DNA of 56,656 nucleotides from a virus. The translations under genes were made by a program, and so were the position numbers. Under the pieces are notes generated by a model. The model did no database searches and was not told where the DNA came from. It saw only the letters and a list, made by a program, of their open reading frames with translations. Position 1 is the first letter of the stretch. Each line of letters opens with the position of its first letter. The stretch is from the IMG/VR virus record IMGVR_UViG_3300036859_000863, positions 1-56,656 of that record. The stretch is one strand, 5' to 3'. Below are positions 2,568-56,365 of the stretch, one piece after another.

Positions 2568-3106
2568 CCGGGGGCGACGACGTCCTCCCGAATCCGCACG
2601 AACCCGCGGGCGGTGAGCCGCTCGTGGATGGCGTCCTTGCGGGCCGGGCCGTCAATGTACACATTTGTTTCCACAGTGATTAGACGGACGGTCCACTGGT
2701 CGAAATCCATGCCGTCGAGGACCTGCAGCTCGTGGCCCTCGACATCGATAGATACATAGTCGATCACCGGCGGCGCGTCGACGAGTTTCAGCATGTGGGT
2801 AAGGGTGTCGGCAGCCATCAGCGTTCCGGCGCCAACGGTGACGCCGTCGAACGGGAGAGGGACGGAGGTGTTCGAGGCGAGGGTGCAGACCCAGGCCGAG
2901 CCGGGCCGGTTGACGATGAGCCGCAGATACGCGGCCGTGTTGGGCTCGACGCACAGCCCGCGCCACCCGTAGTCACGTTCCAGGGCGAGCGTGTTGGAGT
3001 GCTCGACGCCGTCGTAGGCGCCCACGTCGACGAAGAACCCGCCCCGCAGCCCATCGAGCTGCTCGACCACCCATTGGTCCTGGCCGGCCTGAGCGTGAAA
3101 TGTCAC
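2516..3106 (-). CDS. FkbM family SAM-dependent methyltransferase
   Basis: A 196-residue product, probably an O-methyltransferase acting on a sugar hydroxyl. The FkbM signature is clear: FFVDVGAYDGVEHSNT (SAM-binding motif I) at ~28-43, GWRGLCVEPN (acidic ribose-binding Glu) at ~52, and YVSIDVEGHELQVLDG at ~121 followed by ITVETN. The GTG start at 3106 overlaps the upstream stop (GTGA); no in-frame ATG lies early enough. It is the last gene of a three-gene minus-strand operon with a glycosyltransferase and a C-methyltransferase, so it likely finishes a methylated glycan. Confidence 0.85.
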   Translation of the reverse strand: MTFHAQAGQDQWVVEQLDGLRGGFFVDVGAYDGVEHSNTLALERDYGWRGLCVEPNTAAYLRLIVNRPGSAWVCTLASNTSVPLPFDGVTVGAGTLMAADTLTHMLKLVDAPPVIDYVSIDVEGHELQVLDGMDFDQWTVRLITVETNVYIDGPARKDAIHERLTARGFVRIREDVVAPGYGPFEDWFRNARSLAS

Positions 3107-4059: not shown

Positions 4060-5327
4060 CCGCCGACGACGTCGAACGTGGGGCACGGCACGATGAGCTT
4101 GCCGCCGTCGGCGAGATACTTCGCCTCGCGATCGCGGATTCCGGCGAGGAAATGCCAGGGCAGGACCAGCAGGTAGTCGGGGCGGGCGGAGCGCATGTCG
4201 GCCTCGGAGACGATCGGGATGTCGGTGCCGACGGTGCGCAGCCCCCACTTCTCCTGCTGCCGCTCGCCGATCGCGGTGATCAGCGTGTGGTCCAGCCCGA
4301 AGTACTGGAGGAGCGTATTGCCCTTCGTGGAGGCGCCGCACCCCATGACCGTTTGGCCCTGAGCGACGGCGTCTCGGACGAACCCGACGACCTGGTCGCG
4401 GAGCTTCTCGACCTGCCAGCGGAACTGATCCCATCGGGCAGCGGAGTTCATGCCGAACTCAGCCTCGAAGGCGTGGAGCGAGTCGTAGCGGGCCTCGGCG
4501 ACGTCGCGCCGCTGGCGGGTGGCGAACATGGCGGGGTCGGCGTCGGCGTGTCGTGCGATTACTCGGAGCGACCCGCCGTTCGTGTCGTTGAGCGTGGCGT
4601 CGACGACCGCGAACCCTGCGTCCTCCAGCGTGTCGGAGAGTGTTCGCAATGTGTAGTAGCGGGCGTGCTCGTGACAGATGTTATCGAAGGCCACCTGGCG
4701 GAGCATGAGCGGCGTGTACGCCAGCTGGACGACGAATAGCCCGTCGGGGGAGAGCAGGTTGCGGATCGCTTCGAGGAAGGCCGTAGGGTCCATCAGGTCG
4801 TAGAACATGGCGACGCACGTCACGACCCGCGCCTTGCCGTAGTGACGCTGCACCGCTCTCGACGACGACAGCGCCAGGGGCTCGCGGACGATCAGGTCGG
4901 CGTGGTCGAGGCACTCCTGCAGGAAGGTGCCGCCTATCGGGTCGATCCCGACGAGCGTCGGCGTCCTCGACTTGAACGCGGCCCGCACCTGGGAGAGCAG
5001 CGTCCCGTCGTTGGATGCGACGTCAACCCACACGTCCTCGGGGCCGAGGTCGACGAGATCGGCGGCGGCGGCGACGACGACGTCGCGGAGGGCTCGCCGC
5101 ATCGCCGGGTTCGTGCCCGACCGGTACCAGTAGCGTTCACCCCACATCACGTCGGGGGGCGGTTGCTCGGTCAGGTGCACGACCCGAGTGTCTTCGTCCA
5201 TGACCAACTCCAACGGGGCCGACGGGCAGCGGGGCTGCTCGCCGGGGGCGAGGAAGTCGGAGACGTACAGGTCGCCCAGCGACAGGAGAGACGTCACGAC
5301 CTGCAGGCTAGCGACGGGCACGGTCAC
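4056..5327 (-). CDS. Sugar C-methyltransferase (TylC3-like three-domain type)
   Basis: About 423 residues from GTG 5327; in-frame starts at 5420 (ATG), 5321 and 5297 are also possible. Domain order matches the NDP-hexose C-methyltransferase family: a reduced N-terminal part (LGDLYVSDFL...CPSAPLELV), a SAM-binding core (VWVDVASNDGTLLSQVR; CHEHARYYT) and a C-terminal domain with GCGASTKGNTLLQYFGL and LLVLPWHFLAGI. The usual N-terminal Zn cysteines are mostly missing. It heads the minus-strand glycan operon. Such enzymes make branched deoxysugars, which fits the adjacent glycosyltransferase and FkbM enzyme. The extra N-terminal residues from the ATG look non-coding and overlap a divergent small gene, so the GTG is preferred. 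Confidence 0.82.
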   Translation of the reverse strand: MTVPVASLQVVTSLLSLGDLYVSDFLAPGEQPRCPSAPLELVMDEDTRVVHLTEQPPPDVMWGERYWYRSGTNPAMRRALRDVVVAAAADLVDLGPEDVWVDVASNDGTLLSQVRAAFKSRTPTLVGIDPIGGTFLQECLDHADLIVREPLALSSSRAVQRHYGKARVVTCVAMFYDLMDPTAFLEAIRNLLSPDGLFVVQLAYTPLMLRQVAFDNICHEHARYYTLRTLSDTLEDAGFAVVDATLNDTNGGSLRVIARHADADPAMFATRQRRDVAEARYDSLHAFEAEFGMNSAARWDQFRWQVEKLRDQVVGFVRDAVAQGQTVMGCGASTKGNTLLQYFGLDHTLITAIGERQQEKWGLRTVGTDIPIVSEADMRSARPDYLLVLPWHFLAGIRDREAKYLADGGKLIVPCPTFDVVGG

Positions 5328-8843: not shown

Positions 8844-9286
8844 GCCTGCGCCTCGTTCCCGTCTCATTCCGTGAAGCGTCGGCGTTCGTCGCGGCGTTGC
8901 ATCGCCATCACCGCCCGCCGGTGGGGATGAAGTTCGCTATCGGCGCAGCTGACGGCGACGTGCTGGTGGGGGTGGCGATGGTGGGTCGGCCTGTTGCCCG
9001 CCGTTTCGATGACGGTCTGACATTGGAAGTCAACCGCACCTGCACGGACGGGACACAGAACGCCAACAGCATGCTCTACGGGGCCGCCTGGCGAGCAGCG
9101 AAGGCTCTCGGCTATCAGCGGCTCATCACCTACACGCAAGCGGGAGAGAGCGGTACAAGCCTCTCTGCGGCCGGTTGGCGAGTCGTTGCCGAACGTGCAG
9201 CCCGCTCAGGTTGGGATACGCCCTCACGTCGCCGTGACGGCCACGGCGTTGATGGCATCGGCCGCACTTTGTGGGAGGCGTCGTGA
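8840..9286 (+). CDS. XF1762-like protein (GNAT-like family)
   Basis: A 148-residue product from GTG 8840. It carries the family hallmarks I associate with the XF1762 group found in many phages: AALHRHHRPPVGMKFAIG, VGVAMVGRPVARRFDDG, LEVNRTCTDGTQNANSMLYG and TYTQAGESGTSLSAAGW. The fold resembles GNAT acyltransferases, with the RHHRPP motif near the N-terminus, but no substrate is established. It is the largest gene of the cassette inserted in the STAS gene. Confidence 0.75.
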   Translation: MSLRLVPVSFREASAFVAALHRHHRPPVGMKFAIGAADGDVLVGVAMVGRPVARRFDDGLTLEVNRTCTDGTQNANSMLYGAAWRAAKALGYQRLITYTQAGESGTSLSAAGWRVVAERAARSGWDTPSRRRDGHGVDGIGRTLWEAS

Positions 9287-9315
9287 GCGTCCTATGGGAA
9301 GAGGGGGAAACATGA
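9283..9315 (+). other. Empty seam-to-seam mini-ORF
   Basis: GTG 9283 overlaps the stop of the XF1762-like gene and reads only VSVLWEEGET before TGA 9313-9315, which overlaps the next ATG. It therefore consists of a start followed straight away by the seam peptide (LWEEGE) that ends the neighbouring genes. It looks like a module whose middle has been lost, leaving only the joint. Confidence 0.4.
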
Positions 9316-24545: not shown

Positions 24546-25757
24546 ATGGAACTATCAACCCGTAACGCCAGCCTCGACGACCTCGTCGGGCTGCTTACCG
24601 ACCAGCACGCCCGCAAGCTCGACATGGTCGTCCCGGCGTCGGCGGTCCACGCCTACAACGGGAACCTCGTCGTCGAGGGCGCCGACCCGGTGATCGAGGC
24701 CGACGGCGTCACGACCGCCGACGGCTGGTACCGGCCGACCGAGGTGTGTGACGAACATTTGGCCGACAAGCTCGGGATCCCGCTCGCCTATCTGCGTCGG
24801 ACGCGGTTCGAGCGCACCGACCTGTGGGACGCCAACGTCGAAGGCTGGCTGCAGGGCTCGCAGGGCCGCGGCCGCCACTCCGCCGAGGGCGGCAGCCCGG
24901 CCGACCCGCGCTCGTTCCTGCTGCGCACGTTCCAGCACTCGGTGCCGGGCGAGGCAGGCGTGGCCCGCGCCTTCCTGTCGGACCGGTTCGGGATCATCGA
25001 CAACCTCGACGTACTGACGGCCGCCCTCGAAGGGGTGCGCGACGCGGGCGTCGAGGTCGTCGTCGACGGCTGCGACCTGACCGAACGCAAGATGCAGGTC
25101 CGGGTGGTCGCCCCGGCGATCCAGGCGTACGCGCCGACGCTGCTCGCCGGCTATCGCAGCCCGAACTCGGGCTGGACGGTGGACCGGGCCCGCGAAGTGG
25201 CGGCCCGCGAGGGACAGGGGTTCGTCGGGGGCGAGCCGATCGTGTTCGCCGGGTTCGTGATCTCGAACAGCGAGACCGGGGGCGGGGCGTTCTCGATCGT
25301 GCCGCGCTGCGTCGTGCAGGTGTGCAAGAACGGGTTGACGTTCACGATGGACGCCCTCCGCCAGGTGCACCTGGGCGGCAAGCTCGACGAGGGAGTGGTG
25401 CGCTGGTCGTCGGAGACGGCGCAGCGGTCGCTGGAGCTGGTGGCGTCGAAGGCGAAGGACGCGGTGACGACGTTCCTGGACGTCGACTACGTGCAGGGCA
25501 AGCTCGACGAGATCGAGGCGAAGGCCGACCGCGAGGTGACCGAACCGCAGAAGACGATCGAGACGATCGGTAAGCGGCTGCGCTTCTCGCAGGAGCGCAT
25601 CGACTCGGTGCTCGGCCACTTCATCCGAGGCGGCCAGCTCACCGCCGGCGGGGTGCTGAACGCGGTGACGGCGGCGGCGCAGGACGTCGCCGATCCGGAC
25701 GACGCGTTCGAGCTTGAGGTGGCGGCGCTGCAGGCGTTCGAGCTGGCAGCGTCGTGA
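24546..25757 (+). CDS. DUF932-like protein
   Basis: A 403-residue product from ATG 24546 with AAGGAG upstream. It resembles the phage/plasmid DUF932 family: an N-terminal alpha/beta part ending CDEHLADKLGIPLAYLRRTR, LSDRFGIIDNLDVLTAALEG, FAGFVISNSETGGGAFSIVPRCVVQVCKNGLTF, then long C-terminal helices. The biochemical role of DUF932 is not established, though it is often linked to plasmids, phages and defence islands. The structured leader and dyad suggest tight control and perhaps strong expression. Confidence 0.65.
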   Translation: MELSTRNASLDDLVGLLTDQHARKLDMVVPASAVHAYNGNLVVEGADPVIEADGVTTADGWYRPTEVCDEHLADKLGIPLAYLRRTRFERTDLWDANVEGWLQGSQGRGRHSAEGGSPADPRSFLLRTFQHSVPGEAGVARAFLSDRFGIIDNLDVLTAALEGVRDAGVEVVVDGCDLTERKMQVRVVAPAIQAYAPTLLAGYRSPNSGWTVDRAREVAAREGQGFVGGEPIVFAGFVISNSETGGGAFSIVPRCVVQVCKNGLTFTMDALRQVHLGGKLDEGVVRWSSETAQRSLELVASKAKDAVTTFLDVDYVQGKLDEIEAKADREVTEPQKTIETIGKRLRFSQERIDSVLGHFIRGGQLTAGGVLNAVTAAAQDVADPDDAFELEVAALQAFELAAS

Positions 25758-26185
25758 CGGCCGTCGTGACCGGGTCGGGGGCTGCCACCCTGGCTCCCGG
25801 CCCGGTGCGACGGTTCCGGGCGGTCGACGTGATCGCCCGCACCGGATGCAGCGAGCGGCAGCTCACGTACTGGCGCATGTACGGTGGGATCGGAAGGGTG
25901 CGAGGCGCTATCGCCTGGTTCTCGTGGCGTGAGCTGCTTCTCGCCGGCTGCTGGGTGGCGATGCACGGCGGCTGGGAGCACGGTTCGAACAACACCCAGA
26001 TCGGGGTGCTGCGCGAGACGGTTCGCATGGCGTTCGACGAGGACGACTGGGCGCGGTGGCTGCTGGTGCGACCCGGCGAGTATCACTGGGTGGTCGACGA
26101 GGCGAACCTGCCCGACCTGGTGGCGACCTCGGGGCCGGCGTGGTGGCTGCTCGATGTCGCCCAGATCATGGAGGGCCTGCGGTGA
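25754..26185 (+). CDS. MerR-like helix-turn-helix protein
   Basis: A 143-residue product from GTG 25754 (GTGA). The segment RFRAVDVIARTGCSERQLTYWRMYGGIG matches the MerR-type winged helix-turn-helix (ARTGCSERQLTYW as turn and recognition helix). The Trp-rich rest (WFSWRELLLAGCWVAMHGGWEH, PGEYHWVV) has no effector motif I know. It is probably a regulator of the accessory operon or a DNA-binding adaptor. Confidence 0.6.
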   Translation: MTAVVTGSGAATLAPGPVRRFRAVDVIARTGCSERQLTYWRMYGGIGRVRGAIAWFSWRELLLAGCWVAMHGGWEHGSNNTQIGVLRETVRMAFDEDDWARWLLVRPGEYHWVVDEANLPDLVATSGPAWWLLDVAQIMEGLR

Positions 26186-26460
26186 CGTACATCGAGCGAG
26201 AGCGGGGCGACCGGCGGCAGGGGCCGCGGCGGCTGGAGGAGGTCGAGCTACACTACGCCGAACAGGCACTGGTAGCGACGGCGCTGGAGGTCAGCTCGTG
26301 GCGAGAACCACCGGGCTCGGCGCTCGACCGGCTCGACCGGGCCGCCGACGGCTACCGTGCGGCGCTACGCCGCCTGCAGGAAGCCCGGAGGGCACGCCAG
26401 GAGGCCGCAGAGGCCGCCGCGACCGTTCCCGGCGACGCGACCACGAGCGGGTCGCCGTGA
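26182..26460 (+). CDS. Charged coiled-coil small protein
   Basis: A 92-residue product from GTG 26182 (GTGA). It is Arg/Glu/Ala-rich and helical throughout (RRLEEVELHYAEQALVATALEV, LDRLDRAADGYRAALRRLQEARRARQEAAEAAA), likely a two-helix coiled coil. No known domain. Confidence 0.55.
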   Translation: MTYIERERGDRRQGPRRLEEVELHYAEQALVATALEVSSWREPPGSALDRLDRAADGYRAALRRLQEARRARQEAAEAAATVPGDATTSGSP

Positions 26461-26633
26461 GCCGCTCTCTGGGCCGTGTGGCGGTCGCGCTCGTCTCCGG
26501 GGTGGCGGCGACGCTGCTGCTGGTGTGGCTGGCCGACGTGAAGGGCGCGTGGCGGTTGGCGGCCGGCTGCGGGATCGTCTACGCCGGGCTGCTGTTCCTG
26601 GCGACCGATGCCGACCCTGAGGAGGACGAGTGA
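26457..26633 (+). CDS. Small two-span membrane protein
   Basis: A 58-residue product from GTG 26457. Two hydrophobic segments (VAVALVSGVAATLLLVWL and LAAGCGIVYAGLLFLA) are joined by a short loop, with an acidic tail DADPEEDE. It is coupled by GTGA on both sides. The role is unknown; small membrane proteins among early phage genes can affect superinfection or host physiology. Confidence 0.55.
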   Translation: MSRSLGRVAVALVSGVAATLLLVWLADVKGAWRLAAGCGIVYAGLLFLATDADPEEDE

Positions 26634-26803
26634 GGACGTGGCTGCGCACATCGATGGTGGTCACCCGAGCTTGGTTCACGGGCCTCGTGCTCGTACTAGC
26701 GGCCGATCCGCTTCCAGGCGCGCTCGGTGGGCTCGCCCTCGTAGTCGGAATCGGGCTTGTCCTGTGGGACTGGCTGTTAGCCGTGACCGAGGGCAACCGG
26801 TGA
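26630..26803 (+). CDS. Second small two-span membrane protein
   Basis: A 57-residue product from GTG 26630 (GTGA overlap), ending TGA 26801-26803 inside the next GTGA. Hydrophobic segments are WFTGLVLVLAADPLPG and LGGLALVVGIGLVLWDWLL. It lies in tandem with the previous membrane protein and may form a pair with it. No family is recognised. Confidence 0.5.
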   Translation: MRTWLRTSMVVTRAWFTGLVLVLAADPLPGALGGLALVVGIGLVLWDWLLAVTEGNR

Positions 26804-27048
26804 CTGTTCCCTCTGCCCTAGAAGTCCTCATCGACGCGTTGCCGCCGTTAACGCACGGTGGACAGGGTTACTACCAGGAGGCGGTAGCCAGCAACCTGCT
26901 TGATGCGCTGTCTGCTGCCGGATACGTGATCGTTCCCCGCTGGCTGCTGATCGGCTTGGTCGACTGCCACGAGTTCCCCAGTTCCGAACGGTGCGAGTTT
27001 GTGGCCGAAGCCCGCCGGACGCTGGCTCCGGAAGCGAATACAGAATGA
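26800..27048 (+). CDS. Small hypothetical protein, start of low-GC small-gene run
   Basis: An 82-residue product from GTG 26800. It is helical (SALEVLIDALPPLTH, VASNLLDALSAAGYVIVPRWLLIGLVD) with a C-terminal EFPSSERCEFVAEARRTLAPEANTE. The motif LLDALSAAGYVIVP recurs in related form (ALDTLSLAGYTLG) in the protein at 28279-28830, hinting at a shared module. From here to ~29.3 kb the GC content visibly drops. Confidence 0.55.
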   Translation: MTVPSALEVLIDALPPLTHGGQGYYQEAVASNLLDALSAAGYVIVPRWLLIGLVDCHEFPSSERCEFVAEARRTLAPEANTE

Positions 27049-27224
27049 AGGCTCCGCGCAATCCAGACGGCACACTACGGTGGTGTGATACGGAAGGCCC
27101 GCCCGAAAGCACCTACGACGATACGGTCCCAATCGTGCGCTGCGCCGAGCTATACGGCCACGACGGAGCCCACGAGAACGGCTCATGGAAGTGGCCCGCC
27201 GAGCCAGAACCGAGCACAGAATGA
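27045..27224 (+). CDS. Small hypothetical protein
   Basis: A 59-residue product from ATG 27045 (ATGA). It begins KAPRNPDGTLRWCDTEGPPESTYDD and includes CAELYGHDGAHENGSW, where Cys and His residues might bind a metal. It ends in PEPSTE, part of a seam repeated at the ends of neighbouring genes. Confidence 0.5.
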   Translation: MKAPRNPDGTLRWCDTEGPPESTYDDTVPIVRCAELYGHDGAHENGSWKWPAEPEPSTE

Positions 27225-27379
27225 ACCGCGTCACTAGGGTGTACTTCCCGTTTCCGTTGCGCTCCGACTTCTTGGCGGTCATAGAGATGCCCGAGCGGTT
27301 CACGGCTGAGGAGGCGGAACGTGTCTGCGCCTATGTGCGGTCATTGGCTGTTGATGAGCCGGAACCGAGCGAGCCGTGA
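27221..27379 (+). CDS. Small hypothetical protein
   Basis: A 52-residue product from ATG 27221 (ATGA). It has a beta strand RVTRVYFPFPL, then a helix FTAEEAERVCAYVRSLA, and ends with DEPEPSEP. Its last codons (GGAACCGAGCGAGCCGTGA) are an exact copy of the end of the next gene. Confidence 0.5.
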   Translation: MNRVTRVYFPFPLRSDFLAVIEMPERFTAEEAERVCAYVRSLAVDEPEPSEP

Positions 27380-27495
27380 CCAAGTATCAATGCCCTCTGT
27401 GCCGAGGGCCGCACGGGTCGCAGGACTGCCCAAGCCTTGCTCCTACCGAACGTGATCTACCGGGGGTCCCAGTCGCGGAACCGAGCGAGCCGTGA
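27376..27495 (+). CDS. 39-residue protein with zinc-knuckle-like motif
   Basis: From GTG 27376 (GTGA overlap) to TGA 27493-27495. YQCPLCRGPHGSQDCPS gives CX2CX3HX4C, close to the CCHC knuckle of nucleic-acid-binding proteins. The C-terminus VAEPSEP is the repeated seam. Given the motif and the conserved overlaps it is probably a real, very small gene. Confidence 0.5.
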   Translation: MTKYQCPLCRGPHGSQDCPSLAPTERDLPGVPVAEPSEP

Positions 27496-27686
27496 GCGCC
27501 GACATCTGCCCTGTGGTCGGACAGACGTTAGAGGGCCATCACCACGGCTGTTCGCTCGGCAAGGGCCACGACGGCTACCACGTCTGTTTCAAGTGCCGAG
27601 GCACGTTCGCCGATTGGGATTGCTGGTCTGAGCCGCTAGCGAAACTGCGGGCGGTTTCTTCTACAGAGGAAGGGAACGAGCCGTGA
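27492..27686 (+). CDS. Small Cys/His-rich protein
   Basis: A 64-residue product from GTG 27492. It contains ICPVVGQTLEGHHHGCSLGKGHDGYHVCFKCRGTF, with several Cys and His spaced to bind one or two zinc ions. It ends AVSSTEEGNEP, a variant of the seam peptide that also ends the next gene (AVSSTEDQDQ). Function unknown. Confidence 0.55.
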   Translation: MSADICPVVGQTLEGHHHGCSLGKGHDGYHVCFKCRGTFADWDCWSEPLAKLRAVSSTEEGNEP

Positions 27687-27847
27687 GCGCCGAGCGCCAC
27701 CAAGACGGCGCTAAGCACACCGAACGCTGCAATCACGCCCTGTGTCCGTGCTACCTGGAAGGGATGGCAGCAGGGTTGAAGCCAACCGGGCGGGTGCTGC
27801 ATGAAGTGCTCGCGGCGGTTTCTTCTACAGAGGACCAAGACCAATGA
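27683..27847 (+). CDS. Small Cys/His protein
   Basis: A 54-residue product from GTG 27683 (GTGA). It has RHQDGAKHTERCNHALCPCYLEGMAAG and ends LAAVSSTEDQDQ. Its first codons (GTGAGCGCCGA) repeat those of the preceding gene, as though both starts came from one seam. The stop overlaps the next ATG. Confidence 0.5.
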   Translation: MSAERHQDGAKHTERCNHALCPCYLEGMAAGLKPTGRVLHEVLAAVSSTEDQDQ

Positions 27848-28107
27848 GCTACACGACCACCCACACTCACACGATCACCGAGTTCGCCAATCCGTACTTG
27901 CGCTGCGACGTGTGCGGTCAGCCGGTCGAAGGCATGATCGCTCTAGAGGGCCAGGCCACGACCTGTAACCACAGAGGCGAACTGATCCCCTGCCGCCACC
28001 TCGGCGTCACCAGCATCTGCCCGTCGTGGAGCCCGGTTGTGGGTGTCGGCTGCCGCTGCCAAGAACATCTCGGCTACGTACCACACGCAGAGGACCAAGA
28101 CCAATGA
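27844..28107 (+). CDS. Small Cys-rich zinc-binding-like protein
   Basis: An 87-residue product from ATG 27844 behind the AGAGGA ribosome site of the repeated seam. YLRCDVCGQPVEG, TTCNHRGELIPCRH and ICPSW...GCRCQEHLG give about eight Cys and several His, as in treble-clef or tandem zinc-ribbon proteins. It ends HAEDQDQ, the same seam peptide. Confidence 0.55.
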   Translation: MSYTTTHTHTITEFANPYLRCDVCGQPVEGMIALEGQATTCNHRGELIPCRHLGVTSICPSWSPVVGVGCRCQEHLGYVPHAEDQDQ

Positions 28108-28289
28108 GCGGGAGTCGTCAGAAGATCGTCAATGGCAAAGCCTTCGACTGGCCGTACACATGGCGCTGTCTTGACTGTGGCTACGTCGGCCATTCCAACT
28201 TCCACGATTTGAGCGGCCCGAACATTCATGGCACCCAGCCCGGCGTGTCCGGGTTTCTTCTACAGAGGACCAAGACCCATGAGCGTTGA
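28104..28289 (+). CDS. Small zinc-ribbon-like protein
   Basis: A 61-residue product from ATG 28104. It contains YTWRCLDCGYVGHSNFHDLSG (CX2C plus His). At its 3' end the same nucleotide seam as in the two preceding junctions is read in another frame (GFLLQRTKTHER instead of VSSTEDQDQ), so its TGA falls 9 bases inside the next gene. This suggests the seam was joined here without regard to the reading frame. Confidence 0.5.
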   Translation: MSGSRQKIVNGKAFDWPYTWRCLDCGYVGHSNFHDLSGPNIHGTQPGVSGFLLQRTKTHER

Positions 28290-28830
28290 CTGCTGTTCAA
28301 TCGAACACCCCCATAACGGGGCACCCCCACCGGACGGCCAACACCACTGGCTGAGAGCCGTGAGCGGAGAACCAGCAACGAGCCAAGACCTCTCAGGAGA
28401 CCAAGCCGTGAGCGTTGTAGAGGCACTTGCCAAGAGTCTGTGGGAGATCGGCAACCGACGAATCGGTCACCGGCCCTGGGAGACTGTCGCTGACACCTAC
28501 CTGGCGGAAGCGCAGGAGGCGCTCGACACGTTAAGCCTGGCGGGCTACACGCTCGGAACCACTGATCTTGAAGCCGAGCTCGCCACCCTCCACACCAAGC
28601 TCAGCGATTTGCAGTTGGCTATCGCTGATACGGAGGACGACCACCACGGCGAACATACGGCGTGGAAACAGGAGATCGCCACTCTTCGCAGCATCATCCG
28701 CCGCTACCAGTCGGGATGGTTCCTGAGCGACGATTGGCCCGGCAAGTGGTGTCACAAGCGCTGGCCGAACGAGATGCAAACTCCCGATGAGGTCGCCTTC
28801 TTCGAGCAGGAAGCCGAGAACGATGCCTGA
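28279..28830 (+). CDS. Composite small-module protein
   Basis: A 183-residue product from ATG 28279. The N-terminal ~40 residues (DCCSIEHPHNGAPPPDGQHHWLRAVSGEP) look like a Cys/His module, then a helical domain begins at SVVEALAKSLWEIGNRRIGHRPWETVAD. The DNA at 28360-28412 contains GCCGTGAGCG twice, the seam sequence, so this gene may be two modules fused in frame; GTG 28408 could be an older internal start. The C-terminal half is coiled coil plus WPGKWCHKRWPNEM and DEVAFFEQEAEN. Confidence 0.5.
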   Translation: MSVDCCSIEHPHNGAPPPDGQHHWLRAVSGEPATSQDLSGDQAVSVVEALAKSLWEIGNRRIGHRPWETVADTYLAEAQEALDTLSLAGYTLGTTDLEAELATLHTKLSDLQLAIADTEDDHHGEHTAWKQEIATLRSIIRRYQSGWFLSDDWPGKWCHKRWPNEMQTPDEVAFFEQEAENDA

Positions 28831-29314
28831 CATGTTCATGGGCCCACCAACCGAACCCGTTGCCGAAGCGGCACCGATGCCGACGAACCTTGCCGCTCAC
28901 CGAGCCGCTTGGAGTGCATCCCTTGAAGAAGAATCACCAGCGGGCGAAGCTGAACGTGCCTTCTCATACATCGAGGCTCTTGAAGCCGAGAACAAGACCC
29001 TCCGCTCACAGGTGGCTGAACTTCGTGGACGGCATGGATGGCAGACAGGTGTTGGAGCAGACGGTCGCCTTCTTCCAACAGGAGGCCGGGAGGTGAGTTG
29101 GTTTGACCCACCAATGCGAGACGGGTTCTACGATCAGGAGACTGCACTGATAGCGGTGGTTGAGTTCTGGATCAAGGGTGGCCCTAGTCACTCAGATGAT
29201 TTGCCGTTCGGCCCATACAAACGACAGCTTGAAGCGGTCGAGTCGGGAGTTGAGATGCTCAAGTCCGGAAGGTGGCAGTGGTTCACGATCGAGCAAAGGC
29301 TGGTGTTGCCGTGA
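28823..29314 (+). CDS. Small coiled-coil protein, possibly two fused genes
   Basis: A 163-residue frame from ATG 28823. The first half (LAAHRAAWSASLEEES, AFSYIEALEAENKTLRSQVAELRG) is a coiled coil. The second half (VSWFDPPMRDGFYDQETALIAVVEFW) could start on its own at GTG 29093. In another frame the DNA before 29093 reads QTVAFFQQEAGR then TGA overlapping that GTG, matching the end of the upstream gene (EVAFFEQEAEN). Either a frameshift has merged two genes, or the frames agree by chance. Confidence 0.45.
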   Translation: MPDMFMGPPTEPVAEAAPMPTNLAAHRAAWSASLEEESPAGEAERAFSYIEALEAENKTLRSQVAELRGRHGWQTGVGADGRLLPTGGREVSWFDPPMRDGFYDQETALIAVVEFWIKGGPSHSDDLPFGPYKRQLEAVESGVEMLKSGRWQWFTIEQRLVLP

Positions 29315-54730: not shown

Positions 54731-56295
54731 TGTCGCGCACGAAACCGGACGGGATCTTCTACCCGGCGAGGGCGGACACGTTCCCTCCCGGTTTCGCCGG
54801 CGCGGCGGGCACGGGGCTGCCGGTCGGCTGGCTGCAGCGCACCCAGGAGACGGTCGCCGACGCCCTCGCGGGCCGCGGCGTGTACAAGACGACGGTGCTG
54901 TACACGACGTCGGGGGTGTTCGACAAGGCCGACCACCCGAACCTGACCCGGATCGTGGTCACGGTCGTCGGCGGCGGCGGCGGAGGGGGCGGGGTAAATA
55001 CACAGGGGGCGAACCAGTTCGGCGAGGCCGGCGGCGGCGGTGGAGGTGGTGTCACCATGAAGGTGATCGGCGTCGCCGAGTTGCAGGACCGTGAACTCGT
55101 GACGGTCGGCGCCGGCGGGGCCGGTGGGTCCGCGGTCGGCGGGCCTGGCGGCGCCGGAGGTTTGACAAGGTTCGGGTTCCCGGAGCACTGCTCGGCGACC
55201 GGTGGTGGGGGCGCCTCCGGCGTGAACGTCAACGGTGACACCGTCGGCGGCACGGGCGGCGCCGGCCTGAACGGCACCGTAAACCTGACCGGCGACTGGG
55301 GCGGCCCAGGTAACGTCGTGCCTTCTGTCACCTGGCTGGCGATGACGAGGGGGGGCGGAAACACGTTCGCGGGATCGAGACGGAACGTCGGGTTCCCCGG
55401 CGCGGCCGGCTATTTCCCTGGCGGCGGCGGCGTCGGCGCCATCGTGGACGCGTCGTCGCCGGGCCTGGCGGGCGGCGCCGGCGCGGCCGGCATGGTCACG
55501 ATCGACGTCTACACGTCAGTCGACACGTCGGGGCTGTTCTACCCCGACAGGCCGGATACGTTCCCGCCCGGGTTCGCGGGCACGGTCGGCTCGGATCCGG
55601 GGGCGTGGCTGCAGAGGATGCAGGACACGGTACAGGCGGCGCTGCCGACGCTGGAAACGAACCGGCAGATGGCGGTGTTCACGGCCAGCGGATCGTTCGT
55701 CAAGGCGAGCTTCCCGGGACTTAAACGGGTACGGGTCACGGTCGTCGGCGGCGGAGGAGGCGGAGGAGGCGCCCCGGCGACGGGTGCGGGCCAGGCCGCC
55801 GAGGCCGCCGGTGGCGGCGCGGGAGGAACGGTGATCGAGGTCATAGAGGCGGCGGCGCTCGCCGCGTCCGAGACGGTGACGGTCGGCGGTGGCGGCGCAG
55901 GAGGGGCGGCGGGCGCCAACAACGGATCCGCGGGGGGAACGTCGTCGTTCGGGGCGCACTGCTCGGCCACTGGCGGCGCGGGCGGCGCTCAGGGAGTCGT
56001 GACGAGCGGAAACTTCGCTACGGCCAGCGGGCTCGGTGGCTCCGGCTCCGGTGGGCTGTTGAACCTGAACGGCAGCGAAGGGCACAACGGGCAGGTAGTA
56101 AACGGTCTCCGAACCCGCCAGGGACACGGCGGCCGGTCGACGGTATCCGGGGTTCGCCGTTGCCCCGGTGGCGCCGGCTCGACCGGCTACGAACGAGGCG
56201 GGGGCGGGTCGGCGGCCAGCGTCGGGGCGTCCACCGCGGCGGCGGCTGGCGGGGCAGGCGCCGCCGGGGTCGTGGTCGTCGAGGTGGTCACCTGA
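54730..56295 (+). CDS. Gly-rich tail-tip protein with two tandem modules
   Basis: A 521-residue product from ATG 54730 (TGATG). It holds two copies of one module (~1-260 and ~265-521). Each begins (D/S)G(I/L)FYP.R.DTFPPGFAG, continues with WLQR.Q(E/D)TV.(D/A)AL and a (T/A)SG.F.KA strand, then runs of poly-Gly (VVGGGGGGGG) and Ser/Thr/Ala segments. The first module ends VTIDVYT, the second VVVVEVVT. Such Gly-rich domains form polyglycine-type sandwiches at phage tips that bind receptors. A third module follows in the next gene. Confidence 0.72.
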   Translation: MSRTKPDGIFYPARADTFPPGFAGAAGTGLPVGWLQRTQETVADALAGRGVYKTTVLYTTSGVFDKADHPNLTRIVVTVVGGGGGGGGVNTQGANQFGEAGGGGGGGVTMKVIGVAELQDRELVTVGAGGAGGSAVGGPGGAGGLTRFGFPEHCSATGGGGASGVNVNGDTVGGTGGAGLNGTVNLTGDWGGPGNVVPSVTWLAMTRGGGNTFAGSRRNVGFPGAAGYFPGGGGVGAIVDASSPGLAGGAGAAGMVTIDVYTSVDTSGLFYPDRPDTFPPGFAGTVGSDPGAWLQRMQDTVQAALPTLETNRQMAVFTASGSFVKASFPGLKRVRVTVVGGGGGGGGAPATGAGQAAEAAGGGAGGTVIEVIEAAALAASETVTVGGGGAGGAAGANNGSAGGTSSFGAHCSATGGAGGAQGVVTSGNFATASGLGGSGSGGLLNLNGSEGHNGQVVNGLRTRQGHGGRSTVSGVRRCPGGAGSTGYERGGGGSAASVGASTAAAAGGAGAAGVVVVEVVT

Positions 56296-56365
56296 TGCCT
56301 ACGACCAGTCCGGACGGGCTGTTCTACCCCGACAGGCCGGATACGTTCCCGCCCGGGTTCGCGGG
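55531..56365 (+). repeat. 50-base direct repeat of tail module start
   Basis: Bases 55531-55580 and 56316-56365 are identical over 50 positions and code GLFYPDRPDTFPPGFAG. A diverged third copy lies near 54749. The identity at DNA level, beyond protein need, points to a recent duplication or gene conversion of the Gly-rich tail module. Confidence 0.75.

What the first reader, a model, noticed from the sequence alone, without database searches (positions are those of the whole stretch)
27201..28412. A second seam system (J2/J3) linking seven or more tiny zinc-type genes
TTTCTTCTACAGAGGA with its extension recurs three times, plus a shorter fourth copy, and GGAACCGAGCGAGCCGTGA twice exactly, always at gene joints. 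One copy (28251-28285) is used in a different frame, showing that the DNA, not the peptide, is the conserved unit. Most linked genes are 39-87 residue Cys/His-rich proteins. Two unrelated seam sequences serving the same layout in one phage suggest a general way of building and swapping operons of small accessory genes.
Basis: partly seen in the sequence, partly recalled or inferred. Interest (0 to 1): 0.78.

Follow-up and report, generated by a model that had tools for sequence, protein, structure and literature searches.

The report
Repeated joints linking phage accessory genes
A phage strings tiny, unrelated genes together with near-identical short DNA joints that hold the stop and start signals, and in related phages whole genes differ exactly between such joints, which makes the old 'boundary sequence' idea of phage mosaicism directly testable.

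Summary
Within 27,045-28,830, successive gene joints carry two repeat families (J2: 26/22/21-nt exact matches; J3: 20 and 17 nt), far beyond chance, mostly at the tail of a chain of twelve 4-nt stop/start overlaps (1,000 shuffles reach at most five). Gene bodies between the repeats are unrelated. One J2 copy is read in another frame by its upstream gene. Neighbouring joints are most alike (order permutation p=1.3e-4) and one joint is a J2-left/J3-right hybrid, so joints were copied locally.

J2/J3 occur nowhere else searched, so swapping could not be tested on them. Phages related by terminase have their own ~40-nt joint families (X, Y) at the same kind of overlap. There, 180 joint pairs share the flank outside the search motif although neither neighbouring gene is related (0 of 9,028 in a shifted control), and DNA homology between contigs breaks at joints (22 of 114 ends against 6.2 expected, p<=0.0005).

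Best reading: translation-coupling joints that also serve as short-homology boundaries for gain, loss and exchange of small accessory genes. Coupling, and recombination as the cause in this window, are inferred. Precedents: SAS repeats, lambdoid boundary sequences, lambda nin chain, T4 PeSLs. This is a variant.

The parts
25754..28107 (+). Chain of small genes linked by twelve successive 4-nt stop/start overlaps (starts 25754, 26182, 26457, 26630, 26800, 27045, 27221, 27376, 27492, 27683, 27844, 28104)
   Evidence: longest chain in 1000 dinucleotide shuffles of 26401-29000 is 5 joints
27030..27050 (+). Joint 27045 (partial J3-like, shares ACAGAATGAA with joint 27221)
   Evidence: score 14 with its neighbour
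27204..27226 (+). Joint 27221 (GAGCCAGAACCGAGCACAGAATGAA), intermediate between joint 27045 and J3
   Evidence: scores 14 and 13 with its two neighbours
27360..27379 (+). J3 copy 1 CGGAACCGAGCGAGCCGTGA, end of 27221-27379 and start of 27376-27495
27476..27502 (+). J3 copy 2 CGGAACCGAGCGAGCCGTGA plus GCGCCGA, end of 27376-27495 and start of 27492-27686
27650..27693 (+). Hybrid joint 27683: J2 left half (GGCGGTTTCTTCTACAGAGGA) joined to J3 right half (CGAGCCGTGAGCGCCGA)
   Evidence: 21-nt exact match to 27814 and 17-nt exact match to 27486
27814..27849 (+). J2 full copy, end of 27683-27847 and start of 27844-28107
28088..28109 (+). J2 short copy CAGAGGACCAAGACCAATGAGC, end of 27844-28107 and start of 28104-28289
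28252..28284 (+). J2 full copy read in a different frame by the upstream gene; ATG of the downstream gene at 28279
28391..28414 (+). Seam-like sequence AGGAGACCAAGCCGTGAGCGTTG in frame inside ORF 28279-28830, at GTG 28408
   Evidence: score 15 with joint 28279
27376..27495 (+). 39-codon gene flanked by two exact J3 copies (CPLCRGPHGSQDCP, Cys/His motif)
27492..27686 (+). 64-codon Cys/His-rich gene, shares start and tail DNA with the next gene but not its body
   Evidence: body p=0.57
27683..27847 (+). 54-codon Cys/His-rich gene
27844..28107 (+). 87-codon Cys/His-rich gene
28104..28289 (+). 61-codon gene with C-x2-C motif; 11-nt overlap with the next gene
28279..28830 (+). 183-codon gene downstream of the last J2 copy
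28782..28825 (+). Further joint pair, copy 1 (GGTCGCCTTCTTCGAGCAGGAAGCCGAGAACGATG) at start 28823
   Evidence: score 21 with the joint at 29093
29062..29096 (+). Further joint pair, copy 2 (GGTCGCCTTCTTCCAACAGGAGGCCGGGAGGTGA) at GTG 29093

Best explanation
The seams are gene joints of an accessory operon: the tail of one gene, a ribosome-binding stretch and a stop codon overlapping the next start codon, in one block of 20-35 nt. Ribosomes finishing one tiny gene re-initiate on the next (inferred). Because each joint is a self-contained end-plus-start, and near-identical joints sit next to each other, recombination between joints, or with another phage carrying the same joint, can insert, delete or replace whole genes without breaking frame or coupling. 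The array is the product of repeated local copying of joints with unrelated genes placed between them. Shown here: repeated joints at overlaps, unrelated bodies, neighbour-graded and hybrid joints, one copy used in another frame; and, in terminase-related phages with their own joint families, unrelated genes behind the same joint and homology breaks at joints. Inferred: translational coupling, recombination rather than selection on the sequence as the cause, and that J2/J3 behave like the joints of the relatives.
For: Exact 17-26 nt repeats at joints. Chain of 12 overlaps, shuffles at most 5. Bodies unrelated. Adjacent joints most alike: p=1.3e-4, Mantel r=-0.60, 0 of 5000 permutations on a 17-joint set. 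Hybrid joint 27683 = J2 left + J3 right. Different frame at 28252. Relatives: 63 stretches with the joint motif against 1 for its reversal; L086/L088 share 43 nt of joint at 97.7% with unrelated proteins on both sides; L116/L214/L188 share a 54/56 joint with one or both neighbouring genes unrelated; 180 of 9028 gene-unrelated joint pairs share 22 or more of 32 flank bases, shifted control 0; homology ends at joints 22 of 114 against 6.2 (p<=0.0005) and 11 of 115 against 5.0 (p=0.005); no third-position bias.
Against: No relative carries J2 or J3, so exchange at these two sequences is untested. Breaks at gene ends are also expected if random recombination is followed by selection for intact genes (PMC3233612). 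A short local duplication of the joint alone, without exchange between phages, would give the same picture in this window. Relatives were chosen by the motif (the flank identity counted lies outside it). Coupling rests on geometry only; the J3 ribosome-binding stretch is weak (-3.5 against a median of -5.8 kcal/mol).
Confidence: 0.62

Rival explanations
1. Start-associated regulatory element: the repeats are binding sites of a phage or host factor that co-regulates these genes, as proposed for SAS/ESAS, and their repetition is kept by selection.
For: Position at ribosome-binding sites, DNA-level conservation, unrelated genes downstream, as described for SAS in cluster K (PMC3203893) and motifs in Microbacterium clusters EC, EF, EI (PMC7302621).
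Against: Two different sequences serve the same chain, neighbours share half-joints, and joint 27683 is a hybrid; SAS in Anaya is one 13-mer dispersed over about 30 kb with no significant neighbour effect (p=0.06); over 30 other coupled starts of this phage lack the repeats.
Confidence: 0.15
2. Tandem duplication of whole genes whose bodies then diverged beyond recognition while the joints stayed.
For: Genes 27492-27686 and 27683-27847 share both a 17-nt start and a 21-nt tail, and the hybrid joint is what a tandem duplication junction would look like. The later coiled-coil genes 28823 and 29311 show weak body similarity (p=0.005 and p=0.01).
Against: Bodies align at shuffle level (p=0.57) while joints are exact over 20-26 nt, including bases with no evident constraint (other joints in the chain replace them). 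In the relatives the same joint links genes in 10-16 distinct clusters.
Confidence: 0.12
3. Convergence on a good ribosome-binding and overlap sequence without copying.
For: GAGGA nine bases before ATGAGC recurs in relatives.
Against: Identity extends well beyond the SD (GGTTTCTTCTACAGAGGACCAAGACC); J2 SD strength is only median and J3 weak; similarity follows gene order.
Confidence: 0.05
4. SD-hiding hairpin: UCUUC-UACA-GAGGA in J2 blocks the ribosome-binding site until the upstream ribosome melts it.
For: The hairpin forms in the two full J2 copies, with an extra G-C pair in the 28279 joint where the 27844 joint has C and A.
Against: Energies are close to shuffles (z about -0.6 to -1.6) and not special among 91 starts; the short J2 copy lacks the left arm; J3 has no such hairpin.
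Confidence: 0.04

Closest known systems
Short conserved boundary sequences at phage module borders (model stated in PMC3029335 and PMC3233612)
   Same: Short sequence at gene borders, conserved while neighbouring genes differ; proposed site of homologous recombination
   Different: Here the boundary is a stop/start overlap with the ribosome-binding stretch, occurs in tandem along one operon, and neighbouring copies grade into each other; usual examples are single conserved borders compared between phages
Start-Associated Sequences (SAS/ESAS) of cluster K mycobacteriophages and motifs of Microbacterium clusters EC, EF, EI (PMC3203893, PMC7302621)
   Same: Repeats at start codons that include the SD, in front of unrelated non-structural genes
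   Different: SAS is one 13-mer dispersed over the genome, mostly at gene gaps above 50 bp; here two intergrading 20-35 nt sequences at 4-nt overlaps within 1 kb, extending into the upstream gene
Lambda/P22 nin region chain of ATGA-linked genes (Kroger and Hobom 1982, cited in PMC8022706)
   Same: Chain of small non-essential-type genes linked by ATGA overlaps
   Different: nin joints are not near-identical repeats (best scores 12 and 15, null 95% 12)
PeSL mobile regulatory cassettes of T4-like phages (Arbiol 2010, Comeau 2014, cited in PMC4503421)
   Same: Repeated regulatory units between small accessory ORFs, proposed to mediate gene shuffling
   Different: PeSLs are promoter plus stem-loop units between genes; here the unit is a translational joint with no gap between genes

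Membership tests
Start-Associated Sequences (SAS) | Repeat lies at the start codon and contains the SD | tested here: met
   (clear for J2; J3 SD weak)
Start-Associated Sequences (SAS) | One motif dispersed through the non-structural half, mostly in gene gaps above 50 bp (PMC3203893) | tested here: not met
   Two sequences, all within 27.2-28.3 kb, at 4- or 11-nt overlaps
Start-Associated Sequences (SAS) | Motif conserved in front of orthologous genes across related phages | tested here: inconclusive
   No close relative found
Lambda nin-type chain | Successive small genes joined by ATGA/GTGA overlaps | tested here: met
Lambda nin-type chain | Homologous nin genes between replication genes and late activator | tested here: not met
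   No Pfam or PHROG relation of the nine genes scanned; array lies just before terminase
Boundary sequences for modular exchange | Sequence conserved while the genes on one or both sides differ between related phages | tested here: inconclusive
   Met for joint types X and Y of terminase relatives; not testable for J2/J3, only within-genome evidence
PeSL cassettes | Promoter and stem-loop terminator in an intergenic unit | tested here: not met
   Genes overlap, so there is no intergenic space; folds not above background. A promoter scan was not run
Translationally coupled overlapping genes | Stop/start overlap of 4 nt or a very short distance | tested here: met
Translationally coupled overlapping genes | Downstream translation depends on upstream translation | not testable with these tools
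   Needs reporters or ribosome profiling

The most novel reading that the evidence does not exclude
A group of high-GC, actinophage-like phages uses standardized ~40-bp stop/start joints of several sequence types (J2/J3 here, X and Y in relatives) as an exchange interface: recombination at these joints assembles, trims and reorders operons of tiny accessory genes while always keeping translational coupling, a natural cassette-assembly standard.
Probability: 0.33. Interest if true: 0.82.

Novelty: new variant of a known kind. Interest (0 to 1): 0.6.

Why it matters
It also offers a way to find and delimit tiny accessory genes that gene finders miss: several of these ORFs were left out by a coding model trained on the same phage.

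Tried and rejected
J2 16-mer in viral contigs: 70 single-copy hits, none carrying the rest of the joint at a gene joint in the checks made; the two best longer look-alikes (L036, antisense inside a gene; L075, inside an ORF of a Clostridiales contig) are chance. SD-hiding hairpin: not above background. Homologues of the small genes by tblastn, DNA search, Pfam and PHROGs: none beyond one weak PHROG. Portal-region gene as bait: no relatives. A first all-relatives test of isolated short matches was uninformative because conserved terminase motifs dominate. Minicistrons of 5-16 codons between joints looked like 'empty cassettes' but are not enriched over the opposite strand, 12 against 18. Peptide-tag reading of joint types X/Y: differences are not concentrated at third codon positions.

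Full report
What is there. The window is a 56,656-bp linear virus record, about 70% GC, with only distant terminase relatives (42-43% in the first searches, up to 56% with an alignment query). A purpose-made gene finder gives 81 genes. The stretch 27-30 kb, upstream of the terminase genes, is lower in GC (60-63%) and consists of tiny plus-strand ORFs. From 25754 to 28104 twelve successive starts are linked by 4-nt stop/start overlaps; dinucleotide shuffles of the region reach at most five. This is the best evidence that the tiny ORFs are genes, because their codon scores are poor.

The repeats. Exact repeats of 26, 22, 21, 20 and 17 nt all lie at these joints and are essentially absent from shuffles. 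Lined up at the start codon: 27045 GGAAGCGAATACAGA|ATGAA; 27221 GAGCCAGAACCGAGCACAGA|ATGAA; 27376 GAGCCGGAACCGAGCGAGCC|GTGAC; 27492 GCGGAACCGAGCGAGCC|GTGAGCGCCGA; 27683 GGCGGTTTCTTCTACAGAGGAAGGGAACGAGCC|GTGAGCGCCGA; 27844 GGCGGTTTCTTCTACAGAGGACCAAGACCA|ATGAGC; 28104 CAGAGGACCAAGACCA|ATGAGC; 28279 GGGTTTCTTCTACAGAGGACCAAGACCC|ATGAGC. Each joint resembles its neighbour on the left half, the right half, or both. Order permutation gives p=1.3e-4 and the Mantel correlation with distance is -0.60 (p=3e-4); on a 17-joint set that includes joints without repeats, none of 5000 permutations is as high. Joint 27683 is a J2-left/J3-right hybrid, so J2 and J3 are one evolving series rather than two independent systems.

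Bodies and frame. Gene bodies with seams trimmed show no convincing similarity in the seam stretch; the few low protein p-values do not survive correction for 55 pairs, and the one pair also supported by DNA (28823/29311) lies downstream of the seams. Genes 27492-27686 and 27683-27847 share a 17-nt start and a 21-nt tail, yet their middles align at shuffle level (p=0.57). At 28252 the same DNA is read as GFLLQRTKTHER instead of VSSTEDQDQ, and the overlap is 11 nt instead of 4. What is shared is DNA, not peptide and not gene.

Controls in known phages. With the same measure, lambda and P22 nin joints, the textbook ATGA chains, are not near-identical repeats of one another (best scores 12 and 15, null 95% 12). 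Anaya SAS sites are repeats but without a significant neighbour effect (p=0.06). A second overlap chain in this window (16-20 kb) has no repeats.

Relatives. Eighty contigs were collected by terminase, independent of any seam. Exact joint repeats of 15 nt or more with dissimilar flanks were found in one of them (L127, 24 nt, two successive joints), against five pairs in the window. Allowing mismatches, adjacent linked joints score 15 or more in 8 of 559 pairs against 2 of 2207 non-adjacent pairs. Five contigs (L086, L088, L094, L100, L116) share a joint consensus near GCGAGGAGNCNACCRCATGAGCGAG. L086 and L088 are 96% identical for 2.86 kb, then carry different small genes; at 5263 and 4907 (reverse strand) 43 nt of joint are 97.7% identical while the proteins on both sides are unrelated.

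Breakpoints. A scan for the 21-nt motif found 63 stretches; its reversal found 1. Among these and the terminase set, homology ends fall within -50..+12 of an overlap joint in 22 of 114 right ends (local null 6.2, p<=0.0005) and 11 of 115 left ends (5.0, p=0.005). L116/L214 share joint (54/56) and upstream gene but not the downstream gene; L116/L188 share the joint (54/56) and neither gene; L195/L197, L177/L231 and L100/L190 share the upstream gene only. In 9,028 joint pairs whose two neighbouring genes are both unrelated, 180 have 22 or more of 32 identical bases left of the motif; a 36-nt shift gives 0. These fall into two types: X (GCGGGCCCGGTGCGYCCGGGCGAGGAGCCGACCACATGAGC; 20 contexts, 14 downstream and 10 upstream gene clusters) and Y (CCGGAGCGCCCGGTGRGCAGCGAGGAGACGACCACATGAGC; 28 contexts, 14 and 16). 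Proteins with a CP[VH]CHATP motif stand behind X in L178 and behind Y in L226. Differences from the consensus are not concentrated at third codon positions, so the peptide is not the conserved unit. The set was chosen by the motif; the identities counted lie outside it.

How it probably works. Overlap joints commonly give translational coupling (reviewed in PMC12548453; the titles and abstracts of PMC6728339 and PMC10666635 say the same). A block containing gene end, ribosome-binding stretch and next start can be cut and rejoined within itself with no loss of frame or coupling. Local copying of such blocks creates direct repeats around genes, and recombination between repeats removes or inserts whole genes. 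The hybrid joint and the gene flanked by two identical J3 copies (27376-27495) are the expected footprints. Exchange is supported by comparison in the relatives only; in the window it is inferred. Selection for intact genes after illegitimate recombination can also place breaks at gene ends (PMC3233612), but does not by itself explain near-identical joints between unrelated genes.

Known kinds. [quoted passage not shown]). SAS repeats at starts are known (PMC3203893, PMC7302621), as are ATGA chains (PMC8022706) and PeSL shuffling cassettes in T4-like phages (PMC4503421, citing Arbiol 2010 and Comeau 2014). The combination seen here, tandem neighbour-copied translational joints as exchange boundaries, was not found in the papers searched, which cover open-licence papers only. 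I rate it a new variant of a known kind.

Limits. Zinc binding, expression and coupling are untested. The host is unknown; 'actinophage-like' rests on GC content and on terminase matches to Streptomyces, Arthrobacter and Microbacterium phages among others.

Noticed in passing
   Followed up: partly
window 9283-9315: A ten-codon minicistron (VSVLWEEGET*) between two overlap joints, start directly followed by the next seam; minicistrons were not enriched in relatives.
   Followed up: partly
window 28823-29096: Two open frames overlap; a frame ending VAFFQQEAGR* resembles the C-terminus of the preceding gene (VAFFEQEAENDA*), and the ORF 28823-29314 runs through a seam-like GTGA at 29093, suggesting a frameshift or fusion of two genes at a joint.
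   Followed up: partly
L116 14691-14949 (reverse strand), L180, L187, L229, L233: Type Y joints often contain an in-frame GTGAGC followed directly by the tail (PVSSEETT*), as if an older start had been fused into the joint.
   Followed up: partly
L127:2656-2679 and 3039-3062: 24-nt exact joint repeat CGACGAGGCGACGTCGTGAGCGCC at two successive GTGA overlaps in a terminase relative.
   Followed up: partly
window 55531-55580 and 56316-56365: 50-nt exact repeat in successive genes at the right end (GLFYPDRPDTFPPGFAG), likely duplicated repeat proteins.
   Followed up: no
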